From contig NC_011894.1 in assembly GCF_000022085.1 (NCBI RefSeq), forward strand, positions 894,501 to 958,500: DNA of 64,000 nucleotides, in the 5' to 3' direction. Below, piece after piece: positions 32,730 through 54,659 of this stretch. How positions within the stretch are numbered: position 1 is the first letter of the stretch; every line of letters starts with the position of its first letter. The notes under the pieces were generated by a model. It was given only the letters and a program-made list of their open reading frames with translations. It ran no database searches and was not told the DNA's origin. The position numbers and the translations under genes are program-made. The stretch comes from Methylobacterium nodulans ORS 2060. Lineage in GTDB: Bacteria > Pseudomonadota > Alphaproteobacteria > Rhizobiales > Beijerinckiaceae.

Positions 32730-33128
32730 CCTCAACTCCGACTTCCCGCGATCGGGCTCGCAGGCCTGCGGTCTGCCCGATCGAGACGCCCCCGCGGACC
32801 ACTCATACCGCACCGCGCGCCGGAAACCCAAGAGGAGCAGACTTCGCCTTCGTCCGCTGCCCATCTTCCGACGCCGTCAGGAAAACCCCGACAGATTGAC
32901 CAATCTAACCTTACACCAAGAACCCCGAAATAGGCTGGGCAACAATCTCCCCCTTTGATAGTTAATTTGTTGCTAACGCACAACACAGCGCGTGAAGCCT
33001 GCCCGACCGGGAAACCAACACCTGAACCGCAGCGCCGGTCCGGCCGGCTGCGCGGCTCGTTTCGGATCAGGCCTCGGGCTCTGCCGGGCGGGGGGTACCG
33101 GCCATTCGGCGTGGAGGACTGTCTGCTC
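32730..33128. promoter_or_regulatory. Divergent spacer between the ExoX-like gene and exoY copy 1
   Basis: About 400 bases without a gene. From 32833 onward it is part of the 1,102-bp duplication, so both exoY copies share about 296 bases of upstream DNA. That includes an AT-rich stretch (32955-32975) with GTTA and TAAC half-sites nine bases apart. Confidence 0.45.
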
Positions 33129-33806
33129 ATGAAAAGCATGCCCGAGTCTTCGGCTGTCGAAGCGGCGGGGCTGCCGCGCTCCGCGGCCACGCCTGCGGCT
33201 CACCGCCTGAAACGGGCGGTCGACGTCGTGGCGGCGACGCTCGCCCTGGTCCTGTTGAGCGTCCTGCTCGCGATGACCGCCCTGGCCATCCTGATCCTGG
33301 AAGGGCGACCGATCCTCATCCGGCACCAGCGCATTGGCCGCAACGGCGCCCGCTTTGCGTGCCTGAAGTTTCGCACCATGGTGGTGAACGCGGACGAGGT
33401 TCTGACGCGCCATCTCGCCGAGGACCCAGCCGCTCTGTGCGAATGGCACGCCCGGCGCAAGCTCACGCGCGATCCCCGCGTGACCCCGCTCGGGCGCGTC
33501 TTGCGCGAGACCAGTCTCGACGAGCTTCCCCAACTCATCAACATCCTTCGCGGCGAGATGAGCCTTGTCGGTCCACGCCCCATCGTGGCCGAAGAAATTC
33601 CGCGCTATGGTGCCGCTTTCGCCGACTACAAATCCGTCAGGCCGGGCCTGACCGGCTTGTGGCAATGCAGCGGACGGAATGACGTCAGCTACGAGCAGCG
33701 GGTGAAGCTGGATCGAGCCTACGTCCGGACATGGTCCCTGATGCAGGACATTCGGATCATCTTGCGGACCATCCCGGCCGTGATCAGCTCGCGTGGGGTC
33801 TACTAG
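33129..33806 (+). CDS. exoY: Undecaprenyl-phosphate sugar phosphotransferase (ExoY type), copy 1
   Basis: A 225-residue bacterial sugar transferase that adds the first sugar phosphate to undecaprenyl phosphate at the inner membrane and so starts EPS repeat-unit assembly. Features: one membrane helix (VVAATLALVLLSVLLAMTAL), then the catalytic domain with KFRTMVVNADEVL, LTRDPRVTPLGRVLRETSLD, ELPQLINILRGEMSLVGPRP and PGLTGLWQ. All family blocks are present. The ATG at 33129 has GGAGG upstream; the frame is open earlier without conserved sequence. It is identical to the gene at 53849-54526. The stop codon lies inside the CTAGAG repeat. Confidence 0.93.
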   Translation: MKSMPESSAVEAAGLPRSAATPAAHRLKRAVDVVAATLALVLLSVLLAMTALAILILEGRPILIRHQRIGRNGARFACLKFRTMVVNADEVLTRHLAEDPAALCEWHARRKLTRDPRVTPLGRVLRETSLDELPQLINILRGEMSLVGPRPIVAEEIPRYGAAFADYKSVRPGLTGLWQCSGRNDVSYEQRVKLDRAYVRTWSLMQDIRIILRTIPAVISSRGVY

Positions 33807-33906
33807 AGCAGAAGCCAGTCAGAGTGGACCGGCTTCGGCTCCAGGCGTTTGAGCTTGCCGCGTTGTCTGCGACGAACCGGCATCCTCGTCGTCGGAAAAT
33901 GCTCCA
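33803..33906. repeat. Dispersed CTAGAG repeat, copy 3 (inside left duplication)
   Basis: Starts CTAGAGCAGAAGCC, has a hairpin GAGCAGAAGCCAGTC / GACCGGCTTCGGCTC-like arm pair and the core TTGCCGCGTTGTCTGCGACG then AACCGGCATCCTCGTCGTCG. It overlaps the exoY stop and may serve as terminator. Confidence 0.75.
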
Positions 33907-34364
33907 GGCAGGACCACAGATGATCCGCGGCAGCGGCGTCCTTGCGCGGCGGGGCCGGTCGGGGAGCAGAACAGTTCAGAGCGGGAGCGTTTCGACATGC
34001 TCGAAATTGATCCCTCGCCCCCGATCCAGCTCGGGAAGCAGCCGAGGGGGCCAGGCGACCGACCGGCGCATTCCGTGGGCCTCCTGGCGATCAGCCGGGC
34101 ACTCGGAACGATCGCCGGCTTTGCCTGGGTCTATGGCCTCGACGCGGGCATGCGGACGATCGCGTGGCTCAACGCGCAACGGTGCGAGCGCACGCCACGT
34201 CAACTCCGCTCCCGCTCCGCACTGCCCTGGAGCCCTATCCCGGCCAACGATCGTGGAAGCCCCGCGACGGTCGCGGGGCTTCCACGTGCGAAAGCGGGCG
34301 TGGGCAGCCCCGTGGCCCGCGTGGACACAAAGGCCGACGCGGCGCTTCGGTCATCGGAGGGATC
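33907..34364. other. Leader region with a perfect 15-bp hairpin
   Basis: About 460 bases. An open frame at 33997-34368 has no recognisable protein. The perfect hairpin at 34253-34285 (listed separately) is about 80 bases before the glycosyltransferase start. Confidence 0.4.
34253..34285 (+). terminator. Perfect 15-bp stem hairpin before the first glycosyltransferase
   Basis: GTGGAAGCCCCGCGA and TCGCGGGGCTTCCAC pair perfectly around a CGG loop. There is no T run, so it may be a factor-dependent terminator, an attenuator or an RNA-stability structure in the leader of the EPS operon. Confidence 0.5.
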
Positions 34365-35634: not shown

Positions 35635-36948
35635 ATGCTGCACCGTTTCGCTTTCGCGCCGCTCCTTCTGCTCGGATGGCTTCCTGCACACGCCGCCGAG
35701 TATCGCCTCGGTCCACAGGACAAGGTTCGCCTCATCGTGTTCGAGTGGCGCGCGTCGCGCGCCGAGACCTATTCCTGGGCGGCCCTCAACACCGAATTCA
35801 CGATCGGCGCCTCCGGCCAGCTCTCGCTGCCGCTGGTCGGCAACATCGATGCGGAGGGAATGACGCCCGAACAGCTCGGCAACGCAGTCTCCGAGCAGCT
35901 GCAGAAGCGGCTCGGCCTTGTGGAGCGCCCCGTGGCGGCTGCGGAAGTGTCGCGGTACCGGCCGTTCTACATCACCGGCGACGTCGCCAATCCCGGCGAG
36001 TTCCCGTTCCGTCCGGGCCTCACCGTGCTTCAGGCCGTGGCGATCGCGGGGGGCGCGTACCGCCCCCTCGGCGCAACGGCGGCCGGGCTCGAGCGCGACG
36101 CGACGTTGGCGCGAGGCGACCTCCGGGTGATGCGCGCCGAACAGGTGTCGCTCACCGCCAAGCAGGCACGCCTCAAGGCCGAGGCGGACGATCAGGCCCG
36201 CATCGACTTTCCTAAGGACCTCCTGAACCCGATCGCCGCTCCGGAAGCCGGCGACGCCGTTCGCGAGGAGCAGCTCATCTTCGAATCGCGGCGCAACTCC
36301 GTCTCGTCGAAGATCGAGAATCTGACGCAGGGCAAGGTCCTGCTCGACAAGGAGGTCGCCGCCCTCAACGCGAAGGATGCGGGCCTCGAGCGTCAGCTCA
36401 CCCTCGCCCTGAGCGAGCGCGACAACGTTCGGGCGCTTGCCAGCAAGGGACTCGCCATCGGGACGCGCCAGCTCACGACGGAGCAGACGGTGGCGCAGAT
36501 GGAGACCGCGCGGCTCGACATCGGCATTGCCCGCGTGAGGGCGGAGCAGGAGCGCGCCCGGCTCGAACGCAACATCTTGGAACTGCGGGACCAGCGGCGG
36601 GCCGAGATCCTGATCGAACTTCGCCAGGTCGAGGCCAAGCTCAACGAGCTGCGGGAGCGGATCGTGACCGCCGACCGCCTCGCCTTCAATGCTGAGGTGT
36701 CCGGCCCCGAGGCCGAGGAGGCTACGCGGGAAAGCACGGCGAACCTCCAATTCAAGATCGTCCGCGCCGAAGCCGCGGGAGCCGCCACCCGGGACGCATC
36801 CGACAGCACGCCGCTCGAACCGGGTGACATCGTCCAGGTCAGGCGGCGCCGGGCGCCGCTCACGCGGGCGAGCCAGCCCATGGCGTCGCAGAATCTCGCG
36901 CCGCGCAGCGGCAGCGCCAGAGCCATCGCGGATGCCGCGACGCAGTGA
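35635..36948 (+). CDS. exoF: Polysaccharide export protein, ExoF/Wza family
   Basis: A 437-residue secreted protein: signal peptide (residues 1-20, ending HAA), the polysaccharide export domain (EYRLGPQDKVRLIVFEW, GQLSLPLVGNIDAEGMTPEQ), an SLBB domain (YRPFYITGDVANPGEFPFRP, LTVLQAVAIAGG), then a long coiled coil (about 200-380) and a C-terminal LEPGDIVQVRR. This is the layout of rhizobial ExoF, which forms the outer-membrane export path with ExoP. It lies in the middle of the EPS cluster, 68 bases before the ExoP-like gene. Confidence 0.9.
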   Translation: MLHRFAFAPLLLLGWLPAHAAEYRLGPQDKVRLIVFEWRASRAETYSWAALNTEFTIGASGQLSLPLVGNIDAEGMTPEQLGNAVSEQLQKRLGLVERPVAAAEVSRYRPFYITGDVANPGEFPFRPGLTVLQAVAIAGGAYRPLGATAAGLERDATLARGDLRVMRAEQVSLTAKQARLKAEADDQARIDFPKDLLNPIAAPEAGDAVREEQLIFESRRNSVSSKIENLTQGKVLLDKEVAALNAKDAGLERQLTLALSERDNVRALASKGLAIGTRQLTTEQTVAQMETARLDIGIARVRAEQERARLERNILELRDQRRAEILIELRQVEAKLNELRERIVTADRLAFNAEVSGPEAEEATRESTANLQFKIVRAEAAGAATRDASDSTPLEPGDIVQVRRRRAPLTRASQPMASQNLAPRSGSARAIADAATQ

Positions 36949-37016: not shown

Positions 37017-38627
37017 ATGCTGCAGATTAGCCCTAGAATTCCGCTGTCCGAACTGTCTGGGGCGATCTCGCCGGTCGACCAGCGCCTGAGCCCGCGCGAT
37101 GTCATCTCGTTCTGGCGCCGCTACGTTTTGCTCATCATCTCGTGCATGGCGTGCTGCGTCGCTCTCGGCGAAGCCTACGTCCTGGTCACGCCCTCGACCT
37201 ACGCCGCCGCCTCGCAGATCCTGATCGAGTCGCGCCGCGCATCCGGCTTCGCGGCGACGTCCGACGTCAGCTACGCGCAATACAGCCTCGACAGCAGCCA
37301 GATCGAGAACCAGATCCAGATCATCAAATCCGAACAAACCTCAAGACGCGTCGTCAGAGCGATGCAACTTGACGAGAATCAAAATCAAGAGAAGCTGAAA
37401 GCTTCGGTGCTTTCAAGCTTGCGTGGCTACATCCTGGGCAACGGGGATGTGGCCACCCCGCCCGATCGCACGACGATGGCGATGCGGGACTTGCTAGACC
37501 GCCTCCAGGTGCGGCGTATCGGGCAATCCTATGTCCTCGAAATCTCCTATTGGTCGGAGGATCCGGTCGCCGCGGCCCGCATCTGCAACGCGATCACGGC
37601 TGCCTACTTTCAGGATCTGCTCGGCTCCAAGATCGATGCGGCGAAGAATGGCAGCGAGCTCCTCGAGCAACGGATCTCCCTTCTGAGAGATCAGTGGGCG
37701 ACCGCGGACGAGGCGGTCCGGACCGGCACGCTGGACGTGACGAAGTTGGCCACCCCGGAAGCCCGCGTGATCACGATGGCCGCGCTGCCGTCGAAGCGGA
37801 GCTGGCCTCATCAGTCGCTGATTCTGGCCTTCTCCGCGCTCCTCGGCCTGTTCGTTGCGCTCGTGAGCGCGGCCGTCCATCGCAGCCTGGACACCTCGAT
37901 CCGGACGCTGGGTCAAGTCGAGCGCGACCTCTGCCTCAACGTCCTCGGCGTCCTTCCCAACCTGCGGTTCCGCTGCTGGCCCTCGATCGCCAACGAATTC
38001 GCGCGCAACCCGCTCTCTCCGTTCTCGATGGCGGTACGACAGATCAAGACGAGCATCCAACTCCAGCAGACGGGCGGCCCGCTGGTCTGCATTGGCGTCA
38101 CGGCGGTCACCAGCCGAGAGGGTCGGACCACCGCGATCGCGAATCTCGCCCGGGCCTTCGCCGCCTCGGGGTCCCACACGCTCGTCATCGATGCCGACCT
38201 GCGCCACCGCCGTCTCACCCGCGCGCTGCAGCGGACCGTGAATATGGGCCTCTACGAGCTGCTGAACGAGGAAACGACCCTCGAGCAGGTCCTGATCCGT
38301 GGCGCTCCGGGTCAGCCGGACTTCATCCCGGCCTCCCGGAGCCCGACCGCCGGCGCGTCCGAGGATCTCGTCGGCTCCAAGCGCATGAGCGAGCTCCTGG
38401 GAACCTGCCGGAAGTTCTACAGCGTGGTCCTGATCGCGCTTCCGACGCTAGAGGAGGCCCCCGACACGCGGGCGGTCGCCGGCCATCTCGATGGCATCGC
38501 AGTCGTGATCGGCTTCGGCCGCCTGCCATCCTACCGGATTGCGACCGCCCTTCGGAGTTTCGACCGCTCGAACGTCAAGATCCTCGGCGTCATCATTAAC
38601 AAGGGCCGACACGTCCTCACTCATTAG
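37017..38627 (+). CDS. exoP: ExoP/Wzc-like co-polymerase with degenerate kinase motifs
   Basis: A 536-residue inner-membrane protein. There are helices at about 37-57 and 265-288 (LILAFSALLGLFVALVSAAV) around a Wzz-type chain-length domain, with the usual proline-rich approach to the second helix. The cytoplasmic BY-kinase domain is unusual: Walker A reads TSREGRTTAIAN, with arginine (R370) instead of the catalytic lysine; Walker A' is kept (VIDADLRHRRL, D392); and Walker B reads VVLIALP, with isoleucine where aspartate is expected (about 473). There is no C-terminal tyrosine cluster. It is also shorter than rhizobial ExoP. It may control chain length without kinase activity. Confidence 0.85.
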   Translation: MLQISPRIPLSELSGAISPVDQRLSPRDVISFWRRYVLLIISCMACCVALGEAYVLVTPSTYAAASQILIESRRASGFAATSDVSYAQYSLDSSQIENQIQIIKSEQTSRRVVRAMQLDENQNQEKLKASVLSSLRGYILGNGDVATPPDRTTMAMRDLLDRLQVRRIGQSYVLEISYWSEDPVAAARICNAITAAYFQDLLGSKIDAAKNGSELLEQRISLLRDQWATADEAVRTGTLDVTKLATPEARVITMAALPSKRSWPHQSLILAFSALLGLFVALVSAAVHRSLDTSIRTLGQVERDLCLNVLGVLPNLRFRCWPSIANEFARNPLSPFSMAVRQIKTSIQLQQTGGPLVCIGVTAVTSREGRTTAIANLARAFAASGSHTLVIDADLRHRRLTRALQRTVNMGLYELLNEETTLEQVLIRGAPGQPDFIPASRSPTAGASEDLVGSKRMSELLGTCRKFYSVVLIALPTLEEAPDTRAVAGHLDGIAVVIGFGRLPSYRIATALRSFDRSNVKILGVIINKGRHVLTH

Positions 38628-38726
38628 AGCCTTGTCCGACGAAATGGATGCCGGTTCGTCGCAGACAATGCGGCAAACTCAAAGGCCTGGGGCAGAAGCC
38701 GGTCCACCGTGAACGGATTCTGCTCT
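38624..38726. repeat. Dispersed CTAGAG repeat, copy 4 (reverse orientation)
   Basis: Reads ATTAGAGCC, then the core in reverse (CGACGAAATGGATGCCGGTT, CGTCGCAGACAATGCGGCAA) and ends with the hairpin half finishing TGCTCT. It starts within the ExoP-like stop codon. Confidence 0.7.
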
Positions 38727-38915
38727 GGGACGCTGCGCCCCCGACCGGCGCAGACCACCGCCGATCGATCTTCGCGTTTGATGCTGCCGGACAGTGCACG
38801 GCGCAGGTTTCCGATCGGCCGAGCTGGGGTGAGCGACAGCGGCGATCATGTCACGGAGGGATATCGCGCTCTTGGTGTTGACCCATCCCCTGACCTGGGC
38901 ACGAGGCGGATTGCG

Positions 38916-40061
38916 ATGACACGGTACTGGACGGTGAATGGGCGCTTTCTCACCCAACGCATGACCGGGGTCCAGCGCTATGGGCGCGAGACCGTCCTGG
39001 CCCTCGACCGGCTGATCCATGAAGGACATCCCCTGGCGCGCGACCTTGCGGTTGAGATCCTGGTGCCTGCCGGGGCGGCTCCCCTTCCGGATTTGCGCGC
39101 GATTTCCGTTCGCGAGGCCCAGGGCCTCTCCGGCCACCTCTGGGAACAGATCGTCCTGCCGCTCTGGTCAAGGGGCCGCATTCTCAGCCTGTGCAACACC
39201 AGCACGGTGATCGGCCGCAGGCAGATCGTGTGCATCCACGATCTGAACGTCTTTCTCTTCCCGCAAAGCTACTCGCGCGGCTTCCGGCTTCTCTACCGGT
39301 TGCTGCTGCCGCTGCTCGGGCGGGTCAGTCGGACGATCGCCACGGTCTCGCACTTCTCCGCGGAGCAGATTGCGCGGGCCCGGATCACGGGCCCGGACAA
39401 GATCGTGATCGCACCGAACGGGCATGAGCACGCTCTGCGATGGGGGCCGGGCGCGCCCGTCACGGCCGAGGGCGACCGGGATACCGTCGTCGTTCTCGGC
39501 AGCCTGGCCCCGCACAAGAACATCGCGACGCTCCTCAAGATCGCGCCGGACCTGGCGGCGAGCGGGCTGCGCCTGGCGATCGTCGGGAACAAAGAAGCCC
39601 ATGTCTACGGCGATGCCGGGCTTGAACGGAACGCCGCCGGAGCGGTCTGGATGGGCAGCCTGTCGGACCAGGAACTTTCCGCCCTGTTGGCCCGCAGCCT
39701 GTGCCTCGCCTTTCCGTCCTTGACGGAAGGCTTCGGCTTGCCGCCGTTGGAGGCGATGGCGATCGGCTGCCCGGTGGTCGTCTCGGACCGCGCCAGTCTG
39801 CCGGAGGTATGCGCCGATGCGGCACTCTATGCGCCGGCCCTTTCGCCCGATCGATGGTACGAGGCGATCATGAGGCTGCACCGGAATCCGGCGCTCCGGG
39901 CCGAGATGGTCGAGCGCGGCCGCCTCAGGGCGACGCATTTCTCGTGGCAGCGATCGGCCGAAATCTACCTCGACGCCATGGCGCAGGCCGACGGCATCGT
40001 GCCGGTGCGGCGCCCCGCCGAGGAACGGGCCGACGCTCGCGCCGAACTCGCGCCTGGGTGA
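38916..40061 (+). CDS. Family GT4 glycosyltransferase
   Basis: A 381-residue GT-B enzyme: FLTQRMTGVQRYGRETVLAL at the N terminus, IVCIHDLNVFLFPQSYS in the acceptor domain, and a C-terminal domain with VVVLGSLAPHKNIATLL and the E-x7-E motif LTEGFGLPPLEAMAIGCPVV. TGVQRYGRE is typical of mannosyl- or rhamnosyltransferases of EPS clusters. The ATG at 38916 gives the expected N terminus. About 290 bases upstream hold a CTAGAG repeat. Confidence 0.9.
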   Translation: MTRYWTVNGRFLTQRMTGVQRYGRETVLALDRLIHEGHPLARDLAVEILVPAGAAPLPDLRAISVREAQGLSGHLWEQIVLPLWSRGRILSLCNTSTVIGRRQIVCIHDLNVFLFPQSYSRGFRLLYRLLLPLLGRVSRTIATVSHFSAEQIARARITGPDKIVIAPNGHEHALRWGPGAPVTAEGDRDTVVVLGSLAPHKNIATLLKIAPDLAASGLRLAIVGNKEAHVYGDAGLERNAAGAVWMGSLSDQELSALLARSLCLAFPSLTEGFGLPPLEAMAIGCPVVVSDRASLPEVCADAALYAPALSPDRWYEAIMRLHRNPALRAEMVERGRLRATHFSWQRSAEIYLDAMAQADGIVPVRRPAEERADARAELAPG

Positions 40062-40156: not shown

Positions 40157-42685
40157 ATGTCGATCGAGCCGATCGGTCTGATCACCATCCTGGCAGGCTT
40201 CGCCTGTCTCGCGCTCGGTCCGTCTGCGACCATCGCGATCTTCATGTGCTTCGCGCTGCTCGGGGCCGCGGGCGCGGCCTTCCTGACCGCCCTGGGTGGC
40301 GCGAATATCCAGCCGTCCCACATGCTTCTCGCCTTCATCGCCCTGGACCTCGTCCTGCGGCCCGCCCTGGCCCGCGAGAGCCTGAGCACCGTGCGCTTTC
40401 CGAGCGCGGGCTTCTGGCTCCTTCTCACGGTCTGCTACGGAATCGGCGTCACCATCATCATGCCCCGCCTCTTCGCCGGCGCGACTTACGTCTTCTCGCC
40501 GGCTCGGGCGGATAACGGGGTCTCGACCATCCTCACGATCCCGCTCGCTCCCACGGCGGCAAATCTCACACAAACCATCTACTTCGTCGGCGACGCGATC
40601 TGCTTCCTTATCTTCAGCGCCTATGCCTGCCGGCCCGGCGTGGCGCACGAGATCGTGCGCGCGATCATCTGGTGCAGCTTGGTTAATTTGCTTTTCGTCC
40701 TCGCCGATCTCGCGACTTACTACACGAGCACGACCGATCTATTATCGTTCATCAGAAATTCAGCCTATCGGATGCTCGACGACACGGAGGTGAACGGGCT
40801 GAAGCGCATCGTCGGCTCCTTCACGGAGGCCGGGGCCTTCGCCTACACGACATTGGCGCTGCTGGCCTTCAATCTGCGGCTGTGGAGCGAGGGGATCGCC
40901 CCACGCGCGACCGGCCTCCTCGCCCTGCTGTCGCTGATTGCGATCACGTTCGCCACCTCGTCGACCGGCTATGTGGGCCTGTCGAGCCTGCTCGCGCTCC
41001 AGTTCGTGCTCGGGACGTTCCGCCTTCTGAACGGGCGCGCGACGGTCAACATCGTCATGCTGCTCGGTCTCGCGCCCGCGTTCCTGGCCCTCCTGGTCGC
41101 CGCCATCCTGCTCAATCCGGAGGTCAGCAGCAGCGTCAACGACATGATCCAGGCCACGCTGTTCAACAAGCTGTCGTCGGATTCCGGGATCGAGCGCAGC
41201 GCGTGGAACAGGCAGGCGATCGTGGCGATCCGGGACACGCTGTGGCTCGGAGCCGGCATCGGCAGTCTGCGCGCATCGAGCTGGCTGATAGCGGTGCCGG
41301 CCAGCATCGGCGCGTTCGGGGCGGCCGGCTATGGCGCCTTCGTTCTGGCCGCGCTCTTCAAGCGGGGCGATGCGGATGACACGGTGGCGCGGGCGGTGAG
41401 ACTGGGCGCCCGGGATGCCTGTATCGTCCAGGTGATCGCGGCGTCGGTCGCCGGCGCTTTCATCGACCTGGGTCTGAACTTCTTCCTCTACGCGGCCATT
41501 GCGGCCGGCGCGCTCCCTTCGGCGCTGCCGCGCCGCGCGGGGGCCCGGTACCGGCCATTCACGGCGCCCCGCTGCGACTCAGTGGGCGATCCGGCCGGCT
41601 TGACCACTCCCGGTGCCGAGAGTGCCCCGGCGGCCGCAGCCGGCTCCGCAACACGCGCGTCAGGATCCAGGATGCTTAGGAGCGTCGAAAGCGGTCTGGT
41701 GGCACCGGTTCCGGGCACCTTGCGCGGGGCGAGTTCGGATCGGCGAGGCTGCGTGACGACCGGGAACGACGGGATGAGACCGGCCGCTTCGTCGGTCGGT
41801 TCGGTACGGACAACGGAGTTTCGCATGGTCGCCGGAATGTACAAGCGATGCGTCGTGCTGGCCGCGCTGCTGTTGACCGCCGGCGGGACCTGCGCGGCGA
41901 AAGGCCTGACCCGGGATGAAAGGGAGGCCTGTGGCCTGACGCCGGTGTTCACGGATGATTTCACGACCGAAAGCATCAGCGCGCGGGAGCTCGGCGCCAC
42001 CCGATGGACGGCCCACACGCCTTGGAATGGGGATTTCGGCGATGCCATGTTCTCCGATCCGGGACCGGGCGGTCCCTTCGCGGTCGCAGACGGCATCCTG
42101 CGCATCACCGCGAAGCGCAACGAGGACGGCCGGTGGCGCTCGGGACTGATCGCCGCATCCGATTACACGGGTGCAGGGCGCGGCACTCAGTACGGCTACT
42201 TCGAGGCGCGGATGAAGCTGCCGCCGGGACCTGGCACTTGGCCAGCATTCTGGCTCACCACCCTTCGCCCGGCCGATGCCAAGGGGACGTCCGTCGAGAT
42301 CGATGTGCTTGAATACTATGGACATGAGCCCAGGGCCATGCAATCGGCCCTTCATGTGTGGTCCGGCGACCCGAACATTGCGCAACATCTGATCAAGACG
42401 ACGAGTTTACCGCCGGAAGCGCTGGTGAATGACTTTCACACCTACGGGGTGTGGATCTCGCGCGAGGATATCACCTTTTATCTGGATCGCGCTGCGATCT
42501 GGCGGGTTGCGACGCCCAAGGCTCTCGATCTCCCGATGTACCCGCTCGTGAATCTCGCCCTCGGGTCCGGCTTCTCGATCGAGAATACCCCCGATCCATC
42601 GACCCTCCTGGTGGATTATGTCCATGTCTACGCGGCCGCGCCGGCCACACGTCCGGAGACGTGTTGGCCGCTCGGCGGCAAATGA
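40157..42685 (+). CDS. In-frame fusion: Wzy-like EPS polymerase plus GH16 glycanase
   Basis: One uninterrupted 842-codon frame. Residues 1-455 are a multi-pass membrane protein (about 10-12 helices) like ExoQ/Wzy polymerases. Residues about 455-555 are a Ser/Ala/Gly-rich linker. Residues 557-842 are a complete GH16 glycanase with its own signal-like helix (CVVLAALLLTAGG) and the active site E714-I-D716-V-L-E719, as in ExoK beta-glucanases. An internal ATG at 41825 has GGAG six bases upstream, so the glycanase may also be made alone. Polymerase and glycanase are normally separate genes; here no stop codon divides them. Its stop overlaps the FkbM gene start (ATGA). Confidence 0.8.
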   Translation: MSIEPIGLITILAGFACLALGPSATIAIFMCFALLGAAGAAFLTALGGANIQPSHMLLAFIALDLVLRPALARESLSTVRFPSAGFWLLLTVCYGIGVTIIMPRLFAGATYVFSPARADNGVSTILTIPLAPTAANLTQTIYFVGDAICFLIFSAYACRPGVAHEIVRAIIWCSLVNLLFVLADLATYYTSTTDLLSFIRNSAYRMLDDTEVNGLKRIVGSFTEAGAFAYTTLALLAFNLRLWSEGIAPRATGLLALLSLIAITFATSSTGYVGLSSLLALQFVLGTFRLLNGRATVNIVMLLGLAPAFLALLVAAILLNPEVSSSVNDMIQATLFNKLSSDSGIERSAWNRQAIVAIRDTLWLGAGIGSLRASSWLIAVPASIGAFGAAGYGAFVLAALFKRGDADDTVARAVRLGARDACIVQVIAASVAGAFIDLGLNFFLYAAIAAGALPSALPRRAGARYRPFTAPRCDSVGDPAGLTTPGAESAPAAAAGSATRASGSRMLRSVESGLVAPVPGTLRGASSDRRGCVTTGNDGMRPAASSVGSVRTTEFRMVAGMYKRCVVLAALLLTAGGTCAAKGLTRDEREACGLTPVFTDDFTTESISARELGATRWTAHTPWNGDFGDAMFSDPGPGGPFAVADGILRITAKRNEDGRWRSGLIAASDYTGAGRGTQYGYFEARMKLPPGPGTWPAFWLTTLRPADAKGTSVEIDVLEYYGHEPRAMQSALHVWSGDPNIAQHLIKTTSLPPEALVNDFHTYGVWISREDITFYLDRAAIWRVATPKALDLPMYPLVNLALGSGFSIENTPDPSTLLVDYVHVYAAAPATRPETCWPLGGK

Positions 42686-46903: not shown

Positions 46904-46952
46904 GGCCACATGACGCCGTCGCGAAGGGATGTACGCGCCGCCCATGACCGTC

Positions 46953-47057: not shown

Positions 47058-47198
47058 CACTACAGCCGGAGATCGTACAGCGAAGCGTCCGTGCCCTTCG
47101 GGATCCGACGGCGGAGCGCGACTGGTAGGACTGGCTCCCGAAGGGAGTTTCGGCAAACCCGACTGTAGTACTAGCGCGCCCGTGCCGACCGTAGATGG

Positions 47199-48209
47199 AT
47201 GGGTGAACCTGATATGAGTACCGAATATCCGGATAACGAGATCAGTCTCTCCGTCCTGATCTGCACGCGCAATCGCGCAAGATCGCTTGAAAGAACCCTC
47301 GCCTCGCTCGTGCGTGCCAAGAAGCCGGAGGGTTTGGCCTGGGAGATCGTCGTCGTTGATAACAACAGTAACGACGAAACCCAGTCGGTCGTTCAAAGCT
47401 TCGTTTCATCCCTGCCCCTCCGCAGCGTCGTCGAGAGCCAGCCCGGCCTCTCCCATGCACGCAACCGCGGCGTGCTCGCCGCTCGGGGCCGGAATCTGGT
47501 CTGGACGGATGACGACGTCGAAGTCGACGGCAATTGGCTGTGCTCCTATGCTGATGCGTTTCGCAACCATCCGGGTATGAGCCTCTTTGGTGGAGGCTCG
47601 GTCGCCGTCCTGGAAGAGCCCGCCATCGGCTGGTTTCGCGCCAACACGACAGTCCTGCGTGACCTGCTCGCCGTGCGCAATTTCGGGCCGGATCCGGTGC
47701 CCATATCTCTTGCGCGCGGAGCAGTTCCGTTCGGCTTGAACTATGGCGTGAGGGCTGAGGTGCAGCGTCGCTTCCTCTACGACCCCGAACTAGGGGTGGC
47801 GCCCGACCGGCGCATCGGTGGCGAGGAAGTCGACTTCTACGAAAGGGTGCTGAAAGCAGGCTATGCCGGGCTGTGCCTGCCGGATCCTATCGTCTACCAC
47901 CATATTCCGCTGGCACGCCAGACGCTGGACTACGTCCTGTCTTATTACGACAGCGCCGGCGTGACCTCCGCGGTTCTCCTGTTCCGGCACCGGCAACCGA
48001 CGACGCGCGAATACAGCTCGATCCGGCTCAAATGCGTCGTCGCCGGAGCGCTGACCATGGCGACATGGCCGATTCCAAGGGCGCTCCGGCTTCGGACGAT
48101 GATCAGGAACGCGTTTCACAGCGGGCGGTTTCGGCGCCTCCGGCAAATGCACCAGCCCCTTGCACGGCCGGTGACGCCCTTCGCGGGCGAGGCCGTCTCG
48201 AAGAACTGA
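47199..48209 (+). CDS. Family GT2 glycosyltransferase
   Basis: A 336-residue GT-A enzyme: ISLSVLICTRNRARSLERTL, then IVVVDNNSNDET, ARNRGVLAARGRNLVWTDDD (metal-binding DDD) and a C-terminal GGEEVDFYERVLKAGYAG (ED catalytic motif). These are classic for GT2 EPS transferases. The ATG at 47199 is used; a second ATG at 47214 is possible. It precedes the flippase gene. Confidence 0.9.
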   Translation: MGEPDMSTEYPDNEISLSVLICTRNRARSLERTLASLVRAKKPEGLAWEIVVVDNNSNDETQSVVQSFVSSLPLRSVVESQPGLSHARNRGVLAARGRNLVWTDDDVEVDGNWLCSYADAFRNHPGMSLFGGGSVAVLEEPAIGWFRANTTVLRDLLAVRNFGPDPVPISLARGAVPFGLNYGVRAEVQRRFLYDPELGVAPDRRIGGEEVDFYERVLKAGYAGLCLPDPIVYHHIPLARQTLDYVLSYYDSAGVTSAVLLFRHRQPTTREYSSIRLKCVVAGALTMATWPIPRALRLRTMIRNAFHSGRFRRLRQMHQPLARPVTPFAGEAVSKN

Positions 48210-48373: not shown

Positions 48374-49903
48374 ATGTTGGAACGCTTCGCACGAAATACC
48401 CTCTATGGTGTGCTGGCCGCCCTTTCGGGATCGTTGGGAAGCTTCGCGACGACGATCGTCGTGGCGCGCCTGCTCGGGGTGGCGGAAACGGGCGTCTTCA
48501 ATTTCGCACTGTGGGTGATGTCGCTGGCGACGGCGGCGACCGACCTCGGCGCCTATGCGAGTCTCGCCCGGTATCTTCCGGAACTGACGCGATCCGGGCC
48601 GTCCGCAACGGCCCAGCGGCTCGCGGGCTACCTTCTCGTCCCCTTCGCGACCGTTACGATTCTGGGTCTGCTGGCGTTCATCGTCCTGGCGATCTACGTT
48701 GACGTCGATCCCGCGACGGCAGCGCGGTACGAGATCGGCCTGCATCCGAGCCAATGGGTCATCGTCGGTGCCCTGTATGTGGCGCAGGCCTTCTCGAACT
48801 TCACCGTCGGCTATTTTCAAGGTTCACAGCGATTCGACATCGCGGCGAAGCTCGCCGTCTACACCGCCGCCGTGCGCCTCACGGCGACGACGATCGGCTG
48901 CTACTGGTTGGGCGCCACTGGGGCGCTGCTCGGCTACGTCGTCGGACTGGCCATCTCGGCGCCGATCCCGTTCGCCGTCAGCCGCTACGGCGGGACGCTT
49001 TCGCCGGACCTGCGTCGGCGAGTGCGCCGCTACTCCCTGTTCGCCTGGGCCAGCACTCTCGCCTCGGCCCTGATCGTGGCCCGGCCCGAGGTCGCGATCC
49101 TCAACTACTTCCACGGCAAGGAGGCGGTCGGCTTGTACTCGACGGCGTTCACGCTCGCCAACCTCGCCATCCAAGGGCCGCTCCTCCTGACGGCCGGCCT
49201 GGTCCCTTACTTCTCCGAACATGCCGGTACCGGAGAACGCCCGCTGCTCGAGAAGATGATGTCGTCCGGCACGCGCCTCATGGCGTTCATGATCCTGCCG
49301 ATGGCGTTCGGAACGGCGGCGCTCGCCCCGGAGCTCGTGCCGCTTCTCTTCGGTAAGGCCTTCGGCGAGGCGGCCGATCCAGCCGTCATCCTGATCGCCT
49401 CGTCCTGCCTGGGAGGCAACTCGATGCTGTTCGCCGGGCTGATCATCGGCATGGAGCGGAGCGATTTTTCCTTCTATCTCAATCTCTCGGGCGCCGCTCT
49501 GACCCTCCTGATCGGGTTCCTGCTGATCCCGCATTTAGGGACGGTCGGTGCGGCCTTCGGACGGGCGCTCGTTCAGCTGTACCTGTTCGTGCTGAGTGCG
49601 TGGTTCGTCCTGCGGCGCCTGAGCTATCCGATCCCGTTCGCGCATCTCTCGCGCCTGCTTCTCGCCGCGATCGGATGCGCCGTCTGTGCGCGACTGATCC
49701 TCCAGGTGAATCCCGGCATCGCCGGGATGGTGAGCGCGGTCTGCGTCGCGGCCGCGGTCTACTTCCTCCTCGTCCGTCTGCTCAGGGGTCTCGAGCACAG
49801 CGACGTGGACCGCCTGAGATCGCTGCTCAACAGCGCGCCTGGCGTCCTGCGCGTCCCGATTACCGCCATGTTCATTCATCTCGCGTCGAAACCACAAACC
49901 TAG
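48374..49903 (+). CDS. wzx: Wzx-like oligosaccharide flippase
   Basis: A 509-residue polytopic membrane protein with about 12-14 helices. It belongs to the MATE/MVF-like polysaccharide transporter group: N-terminal LYGVLAALSGSLGSFATTIV, VARLLGVAETGVFNFALWV, and later GLYSTAFTLANLAIQGPLLL and TVGAAFGRALVQLYLFVLSA. It moves undecaprenyl-linked repeat units from the cytoplasmic to the periplasmic face for polymerisation. It is the only flippase gene in the cluster, so it is the partner of the Wzy-like domain at 40157. Confidence 0.88.
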   Translation: MLERFARNTLYGVLAALSGSLGSFATTIVVARLLGVAETGVFNFALWVMSLATAATDLGAYASLARYLPELTRSGPSATAQRLAGYLLVPFATVTILGLLAFIVLAIYVDVDPATAARYEIGLHPSQWVIVGALYVAQAFSNFTVGYFQGSQRFDIAAKLAVYTAAVRLTATTIGCYWLGATGALLGYVVGLAISAPIPFAVSRYGGTLSPDLRRRVRRYSLFAWASTLASALIVARPEVAILNYFHGKEAVGLYSTAFTLANLAIQGPLLLTAGLVPYFSEHAGTGERPLLEKMMSSGTRLMAFMILPMAFGTAALAPELVPLLFGKAFGEAADPAVILIASSCLGGNSMLFAGLIIGMERSDFSFYLNLSGAALTLLIGFLLIPHLGTVGAAFGRALVQLYLFVLSAWFVLRRLSYPIPFAHLSRLLLAAIGCAVCARLILQVNPGIAGMVSAVCVAAAVYFLLVRLLRGLEHSDVDRLRSLLNSAPGVLRVPITAMFIHLASKPQT

Positions 49904-49954: not shown

Positions 49955-52042
49955 ATGTCTGCCATGAGTTATCGCCCCGATATCGACGGGCTGCGCGGAA
50001 TCGCAGTCCTGGCGGTCGTCCTGTGCCATGCCGAGATCGGCGCGGCATCGGGCGGATACGTCGGCGTCGACGTCTTCTTCGTCATTTCGGGCTTCTTGAT
50101 CACGGAGATCATTCTTCGCGAGATCGATGCGGGCCAATTCTCGCTGGCGGCCTTCTATCATCGCCGGATCACACGGATTCTGCCCGCCTTCGCGGTCATG
50201 ACGACGGTGACGATGGTGGTCGGGGCATTGATCCTGACCCCGGGCGATCTGCGCAGCCTCGGTCTGAGCGCCGTTGCGGCCGCGCTCTCCCTGTCGAACG
50301 TGGCGTTCTGGCGCTCGGCCGGTTACTTCGACACCGACTCGGCCGAGAAGCCGCTGCTGCACACCTGGAGCCTCGGTGTCGAGGAGCAGTTCTACCTCGT
50401 CTTCCCCGTCTTCGTGCTGGCCCTGACGCGCCTGTCCCCGCCGCGGAGGACGGCCGTAATCGGAGTCGTGCTGGTCGGCTCGGCGCTTCTGTCGTTCGTC
50501 GCGGTTCTGGCCTCGCCGAAAGCGGCTTTCTACCTCGTTCCGACGCGCGCCTGGGAATTGCTGGTCGGAAGCATGACGGCGATCTTCATGCGGTCCGGCC
50601 GCCCTCCGTCGCTGGCGCCCAACGCGCTCGGCCTCGTCGGCCTCGCCATGATCGTCTGGCCAATCCTGCGCTATGACAGCGAGACGCGGTTTCCCGGCCT
50701 CGCCGCCGTGGTGCCGACCCTCGGCGCGGCGCTCGTCATAGTCGGCAGTGCCAGGGCCGGCTCCCCGATCAACCGCCTGCTCTCCGCCGCGGGTCTGGTC
50801 TTCATCGGCAAGATTTCCTACTCGCTCTATCTGTGGCACCATCCCATCTTTGCTTTCTACCGCTACGTGACGCAGGAGGAATTCAAACCCGGCGCACAGG
50901 TGACTCTCATCGCGGCCTCGTTCGCTGTCGGCGCCGCGTCCTGGCGCTGGGTGGAGGTTCCCTTCCGCAGGTCGTACGCCAAGGCGAGGCACAGCGTGGT
51001 CTTCGTTGGGGGCGGAGCGGCCTCGTCCCTGGTCTGCGCCCTCGGTCTCGGCCTCTTCGCGAGCGGTGGCCTCCCGCAGCGGTTCGAGCCTGGGAGGCGC
51101 CAGTTCATCGCCGACAACGAGGCGATCGCCGGTGAATGGCCCTACCCGGCGGCCTGCGGCAACTATTCGCTCAGTGCTTTCGCGGCGGGTGGTCCGATCC
51201 GGTACTGCCGGCCCGGCGTCTCCGCAATGTCATGGGCGGGCGCGAACAGCCCACCCGACCTGCCGAAACGAGGGCTCATCCTCGCCTGGGGCGACTCCAA
51301 CCTGGAGCAACTCTACCCGGTCTTTCAGAGATGGAACGCCGCCGACCCGCCCGGCGGCCGGCAGGTGATCATGGCGACCTATGGGGGCTGCCCTCCCCTG
51401 CTCGGCTTGAACTCGCGCACGCCCGGCTTTCATTGCGGAGAGTTCAACCGTTCTGTCCTGCAGCGCGCGCTCGAGGCGGATGTGGAGACCGTCGTGCTTG
51501 GCGCGTCCTGGACGGGATGGATCGACGGATGGTCCGCCCGTCACGGCGACAACAATCTCTGCTCCTGGCCGGGGGCCTGCACATCGACGCGGTCGCTCGA
51601 GGAGAGGCTTCGGCTGTTTCGGGAGGCTTTCGGCGCGTCGCTCGGCCCAATCCGTCGCACCGGCAAGCGCATCGTGATCATCCTGCCCTTCCCCACCTTC
51701 AGCAAGGCGGTCGCACCCTACGTCGCACGCGCGGCGGCGCTGGGCTGGACGGGAGGCGAGCGCCTCTCCCAGGAGGGCTACCGGCAGGCCTTCGGCCACG
51801 CGCGTTTCCTGCTCGAGGAAGTGGCCCGGGAATACGGCGCGGAGGTCGTCGATCCGTCTTTGATCTTATGCGAAGGACTGTCGTGCCCGATCACCGATGG
51901 CGGCCGGTCGAGCTACCGCGACTCGAACCACCTCTCGGTGGCCTCATCGCTCCTCCTCGAGGGCGCCCTCTCCGCTGCCCTCGCCGGACGCGAACTCCCT
52001 CCAAGGACGGGCCTGTCGAGCAATATCGGGGCGATGAAGTGA
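49955..52042 (+). CDS. Acyltransferase-3 membrane protein with SGNH domain (OafA/ExoZ type)
   Basis: A 695-residue protein. Residues 1-370 are the acyltransferase-3 membrane domain: PDIDGLRGIAVLAVVLCHAE (catalytic His), FYHRRITRILPAFAV and LLHTWSLGVEEQFYLVFPVF. Residues about 440-690 are a periplasmic SGNH esterase-like domain with GDSN (Ser block) and DSNHLS (D-x-x-H block). Such two-domain proteins O-acetylate cell-surface polysaccharides. Here it is expected to decorate the EPS. Start ATG at 49955. Confidence 0.9.
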   Translation: MSAMSYRPDIDGLRGIAVLAVVLCHAEIGAASGGYVGVDVFFVISGFLITEIILREIDAGQFSLAAFYHRRITRILPAFAVMTTVTMVVGALILTPGDLRSLGLSAVAAALSLSNVAFWRSAGYFDTDSAEKPLLHTWSLGVEEQFYLVFPVFVLALTRLSPPRRTAVIGVVLVGSALLSFVAVLASPKAAFYLVPTRAWELLVGSMTAIFMRSGRPPSLAPNALGLVGLAMIVWPILRYDSETRFPGLAAVVPTLGAALVIVGSARAGSPINRLLSAAGLVFIGKISYSLYLWHHPIFAFYRYVTQEEFKPGAQVTLIAASFAVGAASWRWVEVPFRRSYAKARHSVVFVGGGAASSLVCALGLGLFASGGLPQRFEPGRRQFIADNEAIAGEWPYPAACGNYSLSAFAAGGPIRYCRPGVSAMSWAGANSPPDLPKRGLILAWGDSNLEQLYPVFQRWNAADPPGGRQVIMATYGGCPPLLGLNSRTPGFHCGEFNRSVLQRALEADVETVVLGASWTGWIDGWSARHGDNNLCSWPGACTSTRSLEERLRLFREAFGASLGPIRRTGKRIVIILPFPTFSKAVAPYVARAAALGWTGGERLSQEGYRQAFGHARFLLEEVAREYGAEVVDPSLILCEGLSCPITDGGRSSYRDSNHLSVASSLLLEGALSAALAGRELPPRTGLSSNIGAMK

Positions 52043-52204
52043 GTCCGGAGCGGGCATATTTCGGAACGGACAAGCAATTCTCATGACCGCGAGGCTCAAT
52101 TTGATACGTTTTCCGCATGACCCATTCGGAAGACCGATCGAAAACCCGCGCGGTACTTGAGCGAAGCCGAAATCCACGTCGCCGAGCGATCTATCGGATT
52201 TCGC

Positions 52205-53356
52205 ATGAGAGAAACTCTCGCGGTGCAGGAGCCGGCCGTGCGCATCATCCACATTCTCAACCATTGCAATCATGGGCACGGCAACGCACACGTCGCGATC
52301 GACTTGGCCTGCGCGCAAGCCGAGAACGGTTGCGACGTGGTCTATGCGAGCGCGGGCGGCGACTACGAAGGTCTGCTCAAATCAAAGGGCGTTAAAGTCG
52401 TCCATATTACCCAAAAATCTCACAATCCGGCCGTCATAGCCCTCAACCTGCTTAAGCTGATTCGCTTATGTCAGAGATTTAGACCGGACATCCTGCACGC
52501 ACACATGATGACCGGCGCGGCTATTGGCTATATTGCCTCACGGCTGTACAGAACAACACTTATCACAACCGTTCACAATTCTTTCGATCCGCATTCCTTG
52601 TTGATGCGGCTCGGCGACCGCGTGGTGGCCGTGAGCGAAGCCGAGCGGCGCTCGCTTATCGCCCGCGGGTTCAAGGCCGACCGGGTCGAGGTCGTCCTCA
52701 ACGGGCCGAATCTGTCTCCACGCGAAGAGTGGTTGGAGGAGATGCCGTCCGCTCCCGACGTTCGGCGCCCCTGCATCGCCACGGTTTGTGGCCTCCATCG
52801 GAGGAAAGGCGTTCCTGATCTTCTCAGGGCCTTCAAGGAAGCCTGCGCGACCAGCGCGGACTGGACGCTGAACATCGTGGGCGAAGGCCCCGACAGGGAG
52901 GATCTAGAGCAGTTGGCGAGCGAGCTGGGATTGGATGGCAAGGTCCGGTTCCTCGGGAGCATCCCGCGGCCGAAAGCGATCCTGCGGCAGACCGACATCT
53001 TCGTGCTGGCCTCCTACGCCGATCCGTGCAGCCTCGCCTTGGCGGAGGCGCTGTTCGCCGGGTGCGCAACGGTCGCGACCGCGGTCGGCGGCACGCCCGA
53101 GCTTCTCGGCGGCGGCGCCCATGGCGTGCTCGTGCCGCCCGGCCGGCCCGACGCCCTCGCCGCCGCGCTGAGCCGGCTGATGTCGGATCCCGCCGAGATG
53201 GCCAGCCGGCGCAGCCAAGCCCTCACGGCAGCCGGAAAGCTTACGATCCACCGCGTGCGCCAAGAGTACGATGCCCTCTATCGTCGTGCGATCGACAAGG
53301 CGCTCTCGAGCGACGGAAGGGGTTTTTCGGAAGCGGGAGCGACGAGGCGCTCGTAG
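52205..53356 (+). CDS. Family GT4 glycosyltransferase
   Basis: A 383-residue GT-B enzyme: RIIHILNHCNHGHGNAHVAI, RPDILHAHMMTGAAIGYIAS and TTVHNSFDPHSLLMRLGDRV in the acceptor domain, and CGLHRRKGVPDLLRAFKEAC and the C-terminal YADPCSLALAEALFAGCATV in the nucleotide-sugar domain. The first glutamate of the usual E-x7-E motif is an aspartate here (D-x7-E). The stretch 52380-52600 is lower in GC than the surroundings. The ATG at 52205 is chosen; a TTG at 52157 is possible. It is the last gene before the right-hand duplication. Confidence 0.85.
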   Translation: MRETLAVQEPAVRIIHILNHCNHGHGNAHVAIDLACAQAENGCDVVYASAGGDYEGLLKSKGVKVVHITQKSHNPAVIALNLLKLIRLCQRFRPDILHAHMMTGAAIGYIASRLYRTTLITTVHNSFDPHSLLMRLGDRVVAVSEAERRSLIARGFKADRVEVVLNGPNLSPREEWLEEMPSAPDVRRPCIATVCGLHRRKGVPDLLRAFKEACATSADWTLNIVGEGPDREDLEQLASELGLDGKVRFLGSIPRPKAILRQTDIFVLASYADPCSLALAEALFAGCATVATAVGGTPELLGGGAHGVLVPPGRPDALAAALSRLMSDPAEMASRRSQALTAAGKLTIHRVRQEYDALYRRAIDKALSSDGRGFSEAGATRRS

Positions 53357-53848
53357 CAGCGCGTGGCCGCCTCTTGGTCGTTCTTCGCGTGGCCGGGCGG
53401 CTTCGCACCCGACCGCCGTCCGGCATCATCCCTGCGCAATCCGGTGCGGAAGCGGCTGCGCCGTCTCGTGACCCCACCGCCGGCCTTGGCCAACCCTTCG
53501 GGCGACGTCCTGCTCGCTACCGTCCAAGGGCCATTCGATCGGCGCTCCGCACAGGAGCAGACTTCGCCTTCGTCCGCTGCCCATCTTCCGACGCCGTCAG
53601 GAAAACCCCGACAGATTGACCAATCTAACCTTACACCAAGAACCCCGAAATAGGCTGGGCAACAATCTCCCCCTTTGATAGTTAATTTGTTGCTAACGCA
53701 CAACACAGCGCGTGAAGCCTGCCCGACCGGGAAACCAACACCTGAACCGCAGCGCCGGTCCGGCCGGCTGCGCGGCTCGTTTCGGATCAGGCCTCGGGCT
53801 CTGCCGGGCGGGGGGTACCGGCCATTCGGCGTGGAGGACTGTCTGCTC
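53357..53848. other. Spacer and right-copy promoter region
   Basis: 53357-53552 shows no gene. From 53553 the sequence is the right copy of the duplication and carries the same exoY upstream region as 32833-33128. Confidence 0.5.
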
Positions 53849-54526
53849 ATGAAAAGCATGCCCGAGTCTTCGGCTGTCGAAGCGGCGGGGCTGCCGCGCT
53901 CCGCGGCCACGCCTGCGGCTCACCGCCTGAAACGGGCGGTCGACGTCGTGGCGGCGACGCTCGCCCTGGTCCTGTTGAGCGTCCTGCTCGCGATGACCGC
54001 CCTGGCCATCCTGATCCTGGAAGGGCGACCGATCCTCATCCGGCACCAGCGCATTGGCCGCAACGGCGCCCGCTTTGCGTGCCTGAAGTTTCGCACCATG
54101 GTGGTGAACGCGGACGAGGTTCTGACGCGCCATCTCGCCGAGGACCCAGCCGCTCTGTGCGAATGGCACGCCCGGCGCAAGCTCACGCGCGATCCCCGCG
54201 TGACCCCGCTCGGGCGCGTCTTGCGCGAGACCAGTCTCGACGAGCTTCCCCAACTCATCAACATCCTTCGCGGCGAGATGAGCCTTGTCGGTCCACGCCC
54301 CATCGTGGCCGAAGAAATTCCGCGCTATGGTGCCGCTTTCGCCGACTACAAATCCGTCAGGCCGGGCCTGACCGGCTTGTGGCAATGCAGCGGACGGAAT
54401 GACGTCAGCTACGAGCAGCGGGTGAAGCTGGATCGAGCCTACGTCCGGACATGGTCCCTGATGCAGGACATTCGGATCATCTTGCGGACCATCCCGGCCG
54501 TGATCAGCTCGCGTGGGGTCTACTAG
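53849..54526 (+). CDS. exoY: Undecaprenyl-phosphate sugar phosphotransferase (ExoY type), copy 2
   Basis: Residue-for-residue identical to the 225-residue protein at 33129-33806, with the same 296-base leader, so it should have the same activity and initiate repeat-unit synthesis. Unlike copy 1 it has no ExoX-like gene divergent from it: its left neighbour is a GT4 gene on the same strand. The identity of both genes and leaders implies a recent duplication or continuing gene conversion. Confidence 0.93.
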   Translation: MKSMPESSAVEAAGLPRSAATPAAHRLKRAVDVVAATLALVLLSVLLAMTALAILILEGRPILIRHQRIGRNGARFACLKFRTMVVNADEVLTRHLAEDPAALCEWHARRKLTRDPRVTPLGRVLRETSLDELPQLINILRGEMSLVGPRPIVAEEIPRYGAAFADYKSVRPGLTGLWQCSGRNDVSYEQRVKLDRAYVRTWSLMQDIRIILRTIPAVISSRGVY

Positions 54527-54626
54527 AGCAGAAGCCAGTCAGAGTGGACCGGCTTCGGCTCCAGGCGTTTGAGCTTGCCGCGTTGTCTGCGACGAACCGG
54601 CATCCTCGTCGTCGGAAAATGCTCCA
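54523..54626. repeat. Dispersed CTAGAG repeat, copy 8 (inside right duplication)
   Basis: Identical to 33803-33906. It overlaps the exoY stop codon. Confidence 0.75.
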
Positions 54627-54659
54627 GGCAGGACCACAGATGATCCGCGGCAGCATGGA

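What the first reader, a model, noticed from the sequence alone, without database searches (positions are those of the whole stretch)
32833..54654. Exact 1,102-bp direct repeat with identical exoY genes brackets a 19.6-kb EPS module
32833-33934 and 53553-54654 are in the same orientation, offset exactly 20,720 bases, and I could find no mismatch. Each copy contains a complete exoY, about 296 bases of leader and one CTAGAG repeat. Between them lie the export, polymerisation and flippase genes, most glycosyltransferases and the decorating enzymes. Homologous recombination between the copies would delete or amplify one 20.7-kb unit and leave a single exoY. This could work as a reversible EPS phase-variation or gene-dosage system.
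Basis: seen in the sequence. Interest (0 to 1): 0.85.

Follow-up and report, generated by a model that had tools for sequence, protein, structure and literature searches.

The report
Twin exoY genes bracketing sugar-polymer module
A Methylobacterium genome carries two identical copies of the gene that starts exopolysaccharide synthesis, one at each end of a 19.6-kb polymer-making gene block; relatives suggest that such copies recombine with each other, but on/off switching is not shown.

Summary
Observation confirmed: 32833-33934 and 53553-54654 are identical (0 of 1102 mismatches), same orientation, offset 20,720, no homology beyond either end; the full unit occurs twice in the genome. Copy 1 has the ancestral left flank: a two-component pair and a divergent small membrane gene that resembles rhizobial exoX, an inhibitor of ExoY, in position and motif but fails its family profile. 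Copy 2 lies between the intact module and a decayed glycosyltransferase remnant. Each of the 10 other genus genomes with this exoY lineage shows one copy; nine are drafts. The repeat doubles exoY but not the exoX-like gene. Near-identical exoY copies recur: in 7 of 22 multi-copy genomes the best pair is about 95-100% identical; in G007 two copies at sites shared with a sister species are more alike than either is to its orthologue, a mark of gene conversion. Best reading: a recent, recombination-born exoY duplication that changes gene ratio and leaves a 20.7-kb unit open to RecA-type deletion or amplification. Reversible phase variation is unsupported; module deletion would be one-way.

The parts
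32833..33934 (+). Direct repeat copy 1: 296-bp leader, exoY, CTAGAG element, 24-27 bp beyond it
   Evidence: (0/1102 mismatches with copy 2)
53553..54654 (+). Direct repeat copy 2, identical to copy 1
33129..33806 (+). exoY copy 1, initiating polyprenyl-phosphate sugar-1-phosphate transferase, 225 aa
   Evidence: PF02397 8.4e-63; best NCBIfam WbaP_sugtrans 2.9e-87, below its curated cut-off
53849..54526 (+). exoY copy 2, identical
32427..32729 (-). Small protein, 100 aa, three hydrophobic stretches, divergent from exoY copy 1 and 104 bp outside the repeat; exoX-like by position and a Q.GY motif, family membership unproven
30770..32217 (+). Histidine kinase (30770-31549) and LuxR-type response regulator (31546-32217)
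   Evidence: upstream of exoY also in L064 and L067
34365..35519 (+). GT4 glycosyltransferase
   Evidence: scanned from 34164; start chosen by inspection
35635..36948 (+). Wza-type export protein
   Evidence: Poly_export 6.5e-15
37017..38627 (+). Wzc-type chain-length/AAA protein
   Evidence: Wzz 27.9 bits, AAA_31 27.5 bits, just above cut-offs
38709..40061 (+). GT4 glycosyltransferase
40157..42685 (+). One ORF: N-terminal multi-TM part (Wzy-like, inferred) plus GH16 glycanase (possible separate start at 41837)
42451..46010 (+). Methyltransferases: FkbM-type (42451-43548), 43788-44486, 45336-46010
46010..48209 (+). Two GT2-type glycosyltransferases (46010-46903, weak; 47199-48209)
   Evidence: the first is just under its Pfam cut-offs
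48374..49903 (+). Wzx flippase
   Evidence: genus relatives at most 42% aa identical
49955..52042 (+). AT3-SGNH acyltransferase
52157..53356 (+). GT4 glycosyltransferase, last gene before copy 2
   Evidence: best genus relative 58% aa
54667..54927 (+). Frameshifted C-terminal remnant (about residues 203-289) of a second GT2 of the 46010 type
   Evidence: 46% aa over 39 residues, 35% over 88; with L067's homologue pieces fall in three frames; E-values are for a 1-kb target; DNA matches
55380..59092 (+). Nucleotide-sugar epimerase, DegT aminotransferase, GMP/PMI (57464-59092), outside the bracketed unit
33803..33907 (.). CTAGAG-type dispersed element (second copy 54523-54627; full or partial others in the window near 14065, 18066, 38627, 44986, 46953)
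27679..30411 (.). IS1182 transposase (27679-29592, -) and IS66 transposase piece (29659-30411, +) left of the locus
59344..60420 (-). IS110-type transposase right of the locus

Best explanation
The repeat is a recent duplication (or a recent gene-conversion copy-over) of exoY with its own leader, in direct orientation. Copy 1 stands in the ancestral site beside the HK-RR pair and a divergent exoX-like gene. Copy 2 stands where the intact EPS module meets the decayed remains of another module. Both copies have the same leader, so both can be expressed alike (inferred). Shown: two identical exoY and one exoX-like gene; a conserved left flank for copy 1 only; within-genome homogenisation of exoY in several other species of the genus. 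Inferred: the 2:1 ratio raises EPS initiation relative to its inhibitor; the direct repeats let RecA duplicate and collapse the 20.7-kb unit (dosage) or delete it once and for all (EPS loss, leaving one exoY without its glycosyltransferases). The pair most likely arose when a module carrying its own exoY joined the resident locus by homologous recombination at exoY, the resident module then decaying; a simple ectopic duplication is nearly as likely.
For: Exact identity also in non-coding leader and tail, so purifying selection on the protein does not explain it. Left flank of copy 1 aligns with 4 of 9 relatives examined, two of them weakly, while the 196 bp between the last glycosyltransferase and copy 2 has no match better than E 0.1. 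Decayed GT2 remnant directly right of copy 2. One copy of this exoY lineage in each of the 10 other genomes that have it. No TSD. Within-genome exoY pairs of about 95-100% in 7 of 22 multi-copy genomes; in G007, A-B 100% while orthologues A-A are 97.5% and B-B 95.6%, with upstream flanks of A and B shared with G063. Control genes wza and GT34164 in 9 genomes show no such twins. A small membrane gene divergent from exoY also in rhizobia, there ExoX, and the exoX:exoY dosage effect is in print (PMC3233446, passages).
Against: No other genome seen has this pair, so duplication and conversion cannot be told apart here. Nine of the 10 single-copy genomes are drafts, in which identical repeats can collapse (though none of those copies lies within 1.5 kb of a contig end). 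The exoX-like gene has no Pfam or NCBIfam family, its profile match to ExoX is 78% over 30 columns, and a search of 5.8 billion proteins found one homologue besides itself. 38 of 57 exoY copies in multi-copy genomes are closest to a copy in another genome, and G063 A is closer to its G007 orthologue (97.5%) than to G063 B (96.1%). The module-import scenario has no donor. The 9 control genomes were chosen because they have exoY pairs.
Confidence: 0.6

Rival explanations
1. A true EPS phase-variation or bet-hedging switch: RecA recombination between the copies keeps a mixed population of deleted, single and amplified forms, selected for that purpose.
For: 1.1-kb exact direct repeats around a module; exoY-bracketed EPS-type segments recur in G007 (direct, 8.45 kb) and G123 (direct, 16.4 kb); RecA-dependent duplication between two IS copies is described as bet-hedging in Burkholderia thailandensis (PMC12124856, abstract in the listing and passages).
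Against: No variant form could be looked for or was seen; deletion is not reversible; G021 and G063 have inverted pairs whose matching inner stretches keep one orientation; the inversion in G007 did not end in exoY.
Confidence: 0.12
2. Neutral recent duplication: an accident of recombination with no effect on EPS, caught before decay.
For: Identity means recent; a decayed gene adjoins copy 2; IS elements flank the locus.
Against: Recurrence of homogenised exoY in other species, not seen for wza and GT34164 in nine genomes, suggests that something favours keeping exoY copies.
Confidence: 0.22
3. Assembly artefact: one real copy placed twice, or two diverged copies given one consensus.
For: Exact identity over 1.1 kb; short reads cannot span it.
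Against: Closed-looking assembly (8 contigs, 7.77-Mb chromosome); different flanks on all four sides; similar twins in other genomes of one or two contigs (G064, G007, G123).
Confidence: 0.04
4. exoY unit as a mobile element that inserted a second copy by transposition.
For: Repeated unit with sharp ends, ending near a dispersed element; a 15-nt, 87% inverted pair lies about 30 bp inside both ends.
Against: No TSD and no inverted repeat at the ends themselves; the subterminal pair is one of 11 short pairs listed there, so chance-like; no transposase inside; right end 24-27 bp beyond the CTAGAG element; no third full copy.
Confidence: 0.02

Closest known systems
RecA-dependent 208.6-kb duplication between two near-identical IS elements, Burkholderia thailandensis E264 (PMC12124856, abstract and passages)
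   Same: Long near-identical direct repeats around a block; homologous recombination can add or remove units
   Different: There the repeats are IS elements and duplication was observed; here the repeat is the pathway's own initiating gene and nothing has been observed
Loss of wzb between repeats in the Vibrio vulnificus capsule operon (PMC7247339, passages)
   Same: Probable deletion between direct repeats inside a polysaccharide locus; the deleted form is phase-locked, not reversible
   Different: Short repeats (octamer arrays) around one gene, not a 1.1-kb gene-bearing repeat around a whole module
ExoX-ExoY dosage control of EPS I in Sinorhizobium meliloti (PMC3233446, passages)
   Same: Small membrane gene beside exoY; copy ratio predicted to matter
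   Different: The Methylobacterium small protein is not recognised by the ExoX (SyrA) profile; natural exoY duplication
Concerted evolution of prokaryotic paralogues by gene conversion (PMC6053082, abstract and passages)
   Same: Paralogues within a genome closer than orthologues between species
   Different: The main text has no occurrence of 'polysaccharide', 'Methylobacterium' or 'sugar transferase'; here the pattern is seen inside one genus

Membership tests
Bacterial sugar transferase / ExoY-WbaP type (PF02397) | Catalytic domain above the curated cut-off | tested here: met
   211.6 bits against 27; the NCBIfam models listed are below their cut-offs, the protein matching mostly only their C-terminal part
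RecA-type direct-repeat amplification/deletion unit | Long near-identical direct repeats in the same replicon | tested here: met
RecA-type direct-repeat amplification/deletion unit | Duplication or deletion junctions observed | not testable with these tools
   no reads, one genome per species
Programmed phase-variation locus | Linked site-specific recombinase, invertible segment or long simple-sequence tract | tested here: not met
   Direct, not inverted, repeat; no site-specific recombinase among the locus ORFs scanned (some ORFs had no hit and not every ORF was scanned); tandem arrays in 30-60 kb are short, best score 52, 2-4 copies
Composite transposon / mobile unit | Terminal inverted repeats, target duplication, transposase within | tested here: not met
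   a short subterminal inverted pair is chance-like
Concerted evolution by gene conversion (genus-level exoY) | Paralogues closer than orthologues at loci that predate the species split | tested here: met
   G007 A and B against G063 A and B; clear in G007, weak or absent for G063 A and G021 A; 19 of 57 copies nearest to an own-genome copy
Concerted evolution by gene conversion (this window) | Same, for this pair | tested here: inconclusive
   no other genome of 111 holds two copies of this lineage
ExoX / SyrA exopolysaccharide repressor (PF11089) | Match to the family profile | tested here: not met
   window protein no hit at E 10; three other Methylobacterium small proteins no SyrA hit; the rhizobial one hits at 2.7e-18
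ExoX / SyrA exopolysaccharide repressor (PF11089) | Small membrane protein divergent from exoY | tested here: met
ExoX / SyrA exopolysaccharide repressor (PF11089) | Remote profile similarity | tested here: inconclusive
   hhalign 78%, 30 columns

The most novel reading that the evidence does not exclude
In Methylobacterium the EPS-initiating gene exoY (often with an exoX-like gene) behaves as a self-homogenising recombination handle: ectopic gene conversion keeps copies alike at several EPS loci, and these copies serve as homology arms by which whole EPS modules are captured, lost or multiplied while the exoY:exoX ratio sets output.
Probability: 0.22. Interest if true: 0.68.

Novelty: new variant of a known kind. 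Interest (0 to 1): 0.45.

Why it matters
EPS loci are among the most changeable parts of plant-associated bacteria (general knowledge). If the initiating gene itself is the recombination handle, module exchange, copy number and regulation are coupled, and that can be tested in culturable Methylobacterium species. It also warns that short-read assemblies may hide exoY twins.

Tried and rejected
Mobile-element origin (no TSD, no inverted repeat at the ends; a 15-nt subterminal inverted pair is chance-like). RNA element in the leader (no Rfam match at gathering cut-off, 26-62 kb). Simple-sequence switch (only short arrays). exoY-mediated inversion as the cause of the G007/G063 difference: the inverted segment lies to one side of exoY A and takes exoY B with it (my reading of the coordinates). 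Contig-end enrichment as a sign of hidden twins: 11 of 68 draft exoY within 1.5 kb of an end against 6.3 expected by my simple estimate, too weak to claim. Naming the organism through a plasmid search failed (own records may be hidden) and a paper search gave nothing; replicon lengths 7,772,460 and 487,734 fit Methylobacterium nodulans ORS 2060 from recall only. Close relatives of the module at E 1e-60: wzx at most 42% and the last GT at most 58% aa in 111 genus genomes. Literature: by the titles listed, none of the searches showed a paper on exoY twins or exoY gene conversion (one search listed 15 of 475 papers, 12 of 19; most subscription papers are not held). Only PMC3233446, PMC6053082, PMC7247339 and PMC12124856 were opened, as passages.
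Full report
WHAT IS THERE. The two stretches are identical over 1102 bp and differ at once outside. The complete unit is present twice in the 8.84-Mb genome; of 40 matches scored (of 298 candidates) the other 38 concern its CTAGAG-type tail (36) or diverged exoY-like genes (2). Each copy holds a whole exoY (225 aa, PF02397), 296 bp of leader and a dispersed element of about 105 bp that begins at the exoY stop codon. By protein the genome holds five more, clearly diverged exoY-like genes (40-47% aa).

WHAT IT BRACKETS. Wza, Wzc, a multi-TM Wzy-like part fused in frame to GH16, five glycosyltransferases, three methyltransferases, Wzx and an AT3-SGNH acyltransferase. The Wzy call rests on hydropathy only, and the glycosyltransferase at 46010 is just under its Pfam cut-offs. 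Outside the unit lie the regulators on the left (HK-RR, exoX-like) and the nucleotide-sugar genes on the right (epimerase, DegT, GMP/PMI). IS1182, IS66 and IS110 transposases flank the whole locus.

WHICH COPY IS OLD. Of the seven long loci L062-L068, HK-RR lies upstream of exoY in L064 and L067, and the response regulator alone, in opposite orientation, in L068. DNA of the small gene left of copy 1 aligns with 4 of 9 distinct relatives: L039/L147 and L064 well, L067 and L068 weakly. The 196 bp just upstream of copy 2 have no match better than E 0.1 there. So copy 1 has the ancestral flank. Right of copy 2, 54667-54927 is a frameshifted tail of a GT2 like the one at 46010, 46% identical to it over the best 39 residues and 35% over 88. 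It is therefore no trace of a recent tandem copy of this module but probably of another, older one. A crossover at exoY between a resident locus and an incoming exoY-module would give this layout; so, with more steps, would other paths. This scenario is inference.

ONE COPY IN RELATIVES. In 111 genus genomes (own included), 56 have an exoY at E 1e-60, 91 genes in all. Twelve of the 91 form the window's lineage: its two copies and one each in 10 other genomes (quick tree). Nine of these ten are drafts (contig numbers), so collapse is possible, but none of the ten genes lies within 1.5 kb of a contig end.

HOMOGENISED exoY IN THE GENUS. Of 22 genomes with two or more of these genes, 7 have a pair at about 95-100% core identity: G000, G007, G064, G063, G123, G021, G115 (G115 94.9% there, 95.6% by blastn). 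Some pairs bracket EPS-type segments: G007 direct, 8.45 kb, 99.9% over 1337 bp; G123 direct, 16.4 kb, 96.6%; G021 and G063 inverted, 93% and 91%. Others lie far apart or on other contigs with the alike tract confined to 588-736 bp, roughly the gene (G064, G115, G063, two further G007 copies). G007 and G063 share the upstream flanks of both loci A and B, yet G007 A-B are 100% while A-A is 97.5% and B-B 95.6%; that is best read as gene conversion in the G007 line. G115 A resembles its distant paralogue (95.6%) more than its G119 orthologue (90.9%). Over the tree, genome labels cluster (36 changes, shuffled mean 48.1, 0 of 200 as low), but near-copies alone make that happen.

AGAINST THE PATTERN. 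38 of 57 copies are nearest to a copy in another genome, and 4 of the 19 that are not are in genomes without a near-identical pair (G062, G082, G110). G063 A-B (96.1%) is less than G063 A-G007 A (97.5%); G021 A is as close to G112 A as to G021 B (95.1% each). Pairs in G002, G119, G118 and others are diverged. Controls in nine genomes, chosen because they have exoY pairs: wza 19 matches and GT34164 15 matches; judged by identity to the query, no genome has two similar copies.

exoX-LIKE NEIGHBOUR. The 100-aa gene at 32427-32729 has three hydrophobic stretches. Among 56 small multi-TM ORFs found beside 38 of the 91 exoY genes, 7 in other genomes match it (E 1e-24 to 1e-5 in that small set), five upstream and divergent, two downstream. 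A search of 5.8 billion proteins gave one homologue besides itself (it needs shared 5-residue words). In 16 of 28 non-Methylobacterium (mostly rhizobial) exoY loci a small membrane ORF with a Q.GY motif, on which I filtered, lies in the same divergent place; the one scanned is SyrA/ExoX. The Methylobacterium protein itself fails that profile, and the profile comparison is suggestive only (78%, 30 columns). The repeat begins 104 bp upstream of its start codon, so the gene is not duplicated. In S. meliloti the exoX:exoY copy ratio is reported to be important for the EPS I level (PMC3233446, passages). In the G007 unit a 76-aa small ORF lies inside the repeat; if it is exoX-like too, which is untested, the ratio there stays equal.

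MECHANISM. Shown: identical direct copies, a 2:1 gene ratio, and signs of recombination among exoY in relatives. Inferred: more EPS initiation; RecA duplication and collapse of the 20.7-kb unit; one-way deletion that leaves exoY without the glycosyltransferases of this locus, which may tie up carrier lipid (recalled from this pathway type). Phase variation in the strict sense is not supported.

VERDICT. A real and clean feature, new as an instance, built from known processes; the homogenisation of exoY in the genus is the more interesting lead. The organism name (M. nodulans ORS 2060) is recalled from replicon lengths, not from a call.

Noticed in passing
33803-33907, 54523-54627, near 14065, 18066, 38627, 44986, 46953: CTAGAG-type dispersed element of about 105 bp; at least 36 further matches in the genome (capped). 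At exoY its TAG is the stop codon, and another copy ends at the wzc stop.
   Followed up: partly
54667-54927: Decayed C-terminal remnant of a second GT2-type glycosyltransferase right of copy 2, probable trace of an older EPS module.
   Followed up: yes
40157-42685: Single in-frame ORF joining a multi-TM polymerase-like part with a GH16 glycanase; could be two genes (second start near 41837).
   Followed up: partly
42000-45000: Dip in G+C (0.56-0.61) around the methyltransferase genes, against 0.60-0.70 in most of the module; possibly of foreign origin.
   Followed up: no
L142 (G007), L143 (G021), L144 (G063), L145 (G123): Near-identical exoY units bracketing EPS-type segments in other Methylobacterium species, direct or inverted.
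   Followed up: yes
L186-L188 against L202-L204 (G007 and G063): Inversion of a segment plus loss of about 8-9 kb between sister species; the loss starts within about 100 bp of the exoY B unit.
   Followed up: partly
61197-62591: DNA methylase of the N6/N4 type with a weak ParB-like N-terminus right of the IS110 element, phage- or plasmid-like.
   Followed up: no
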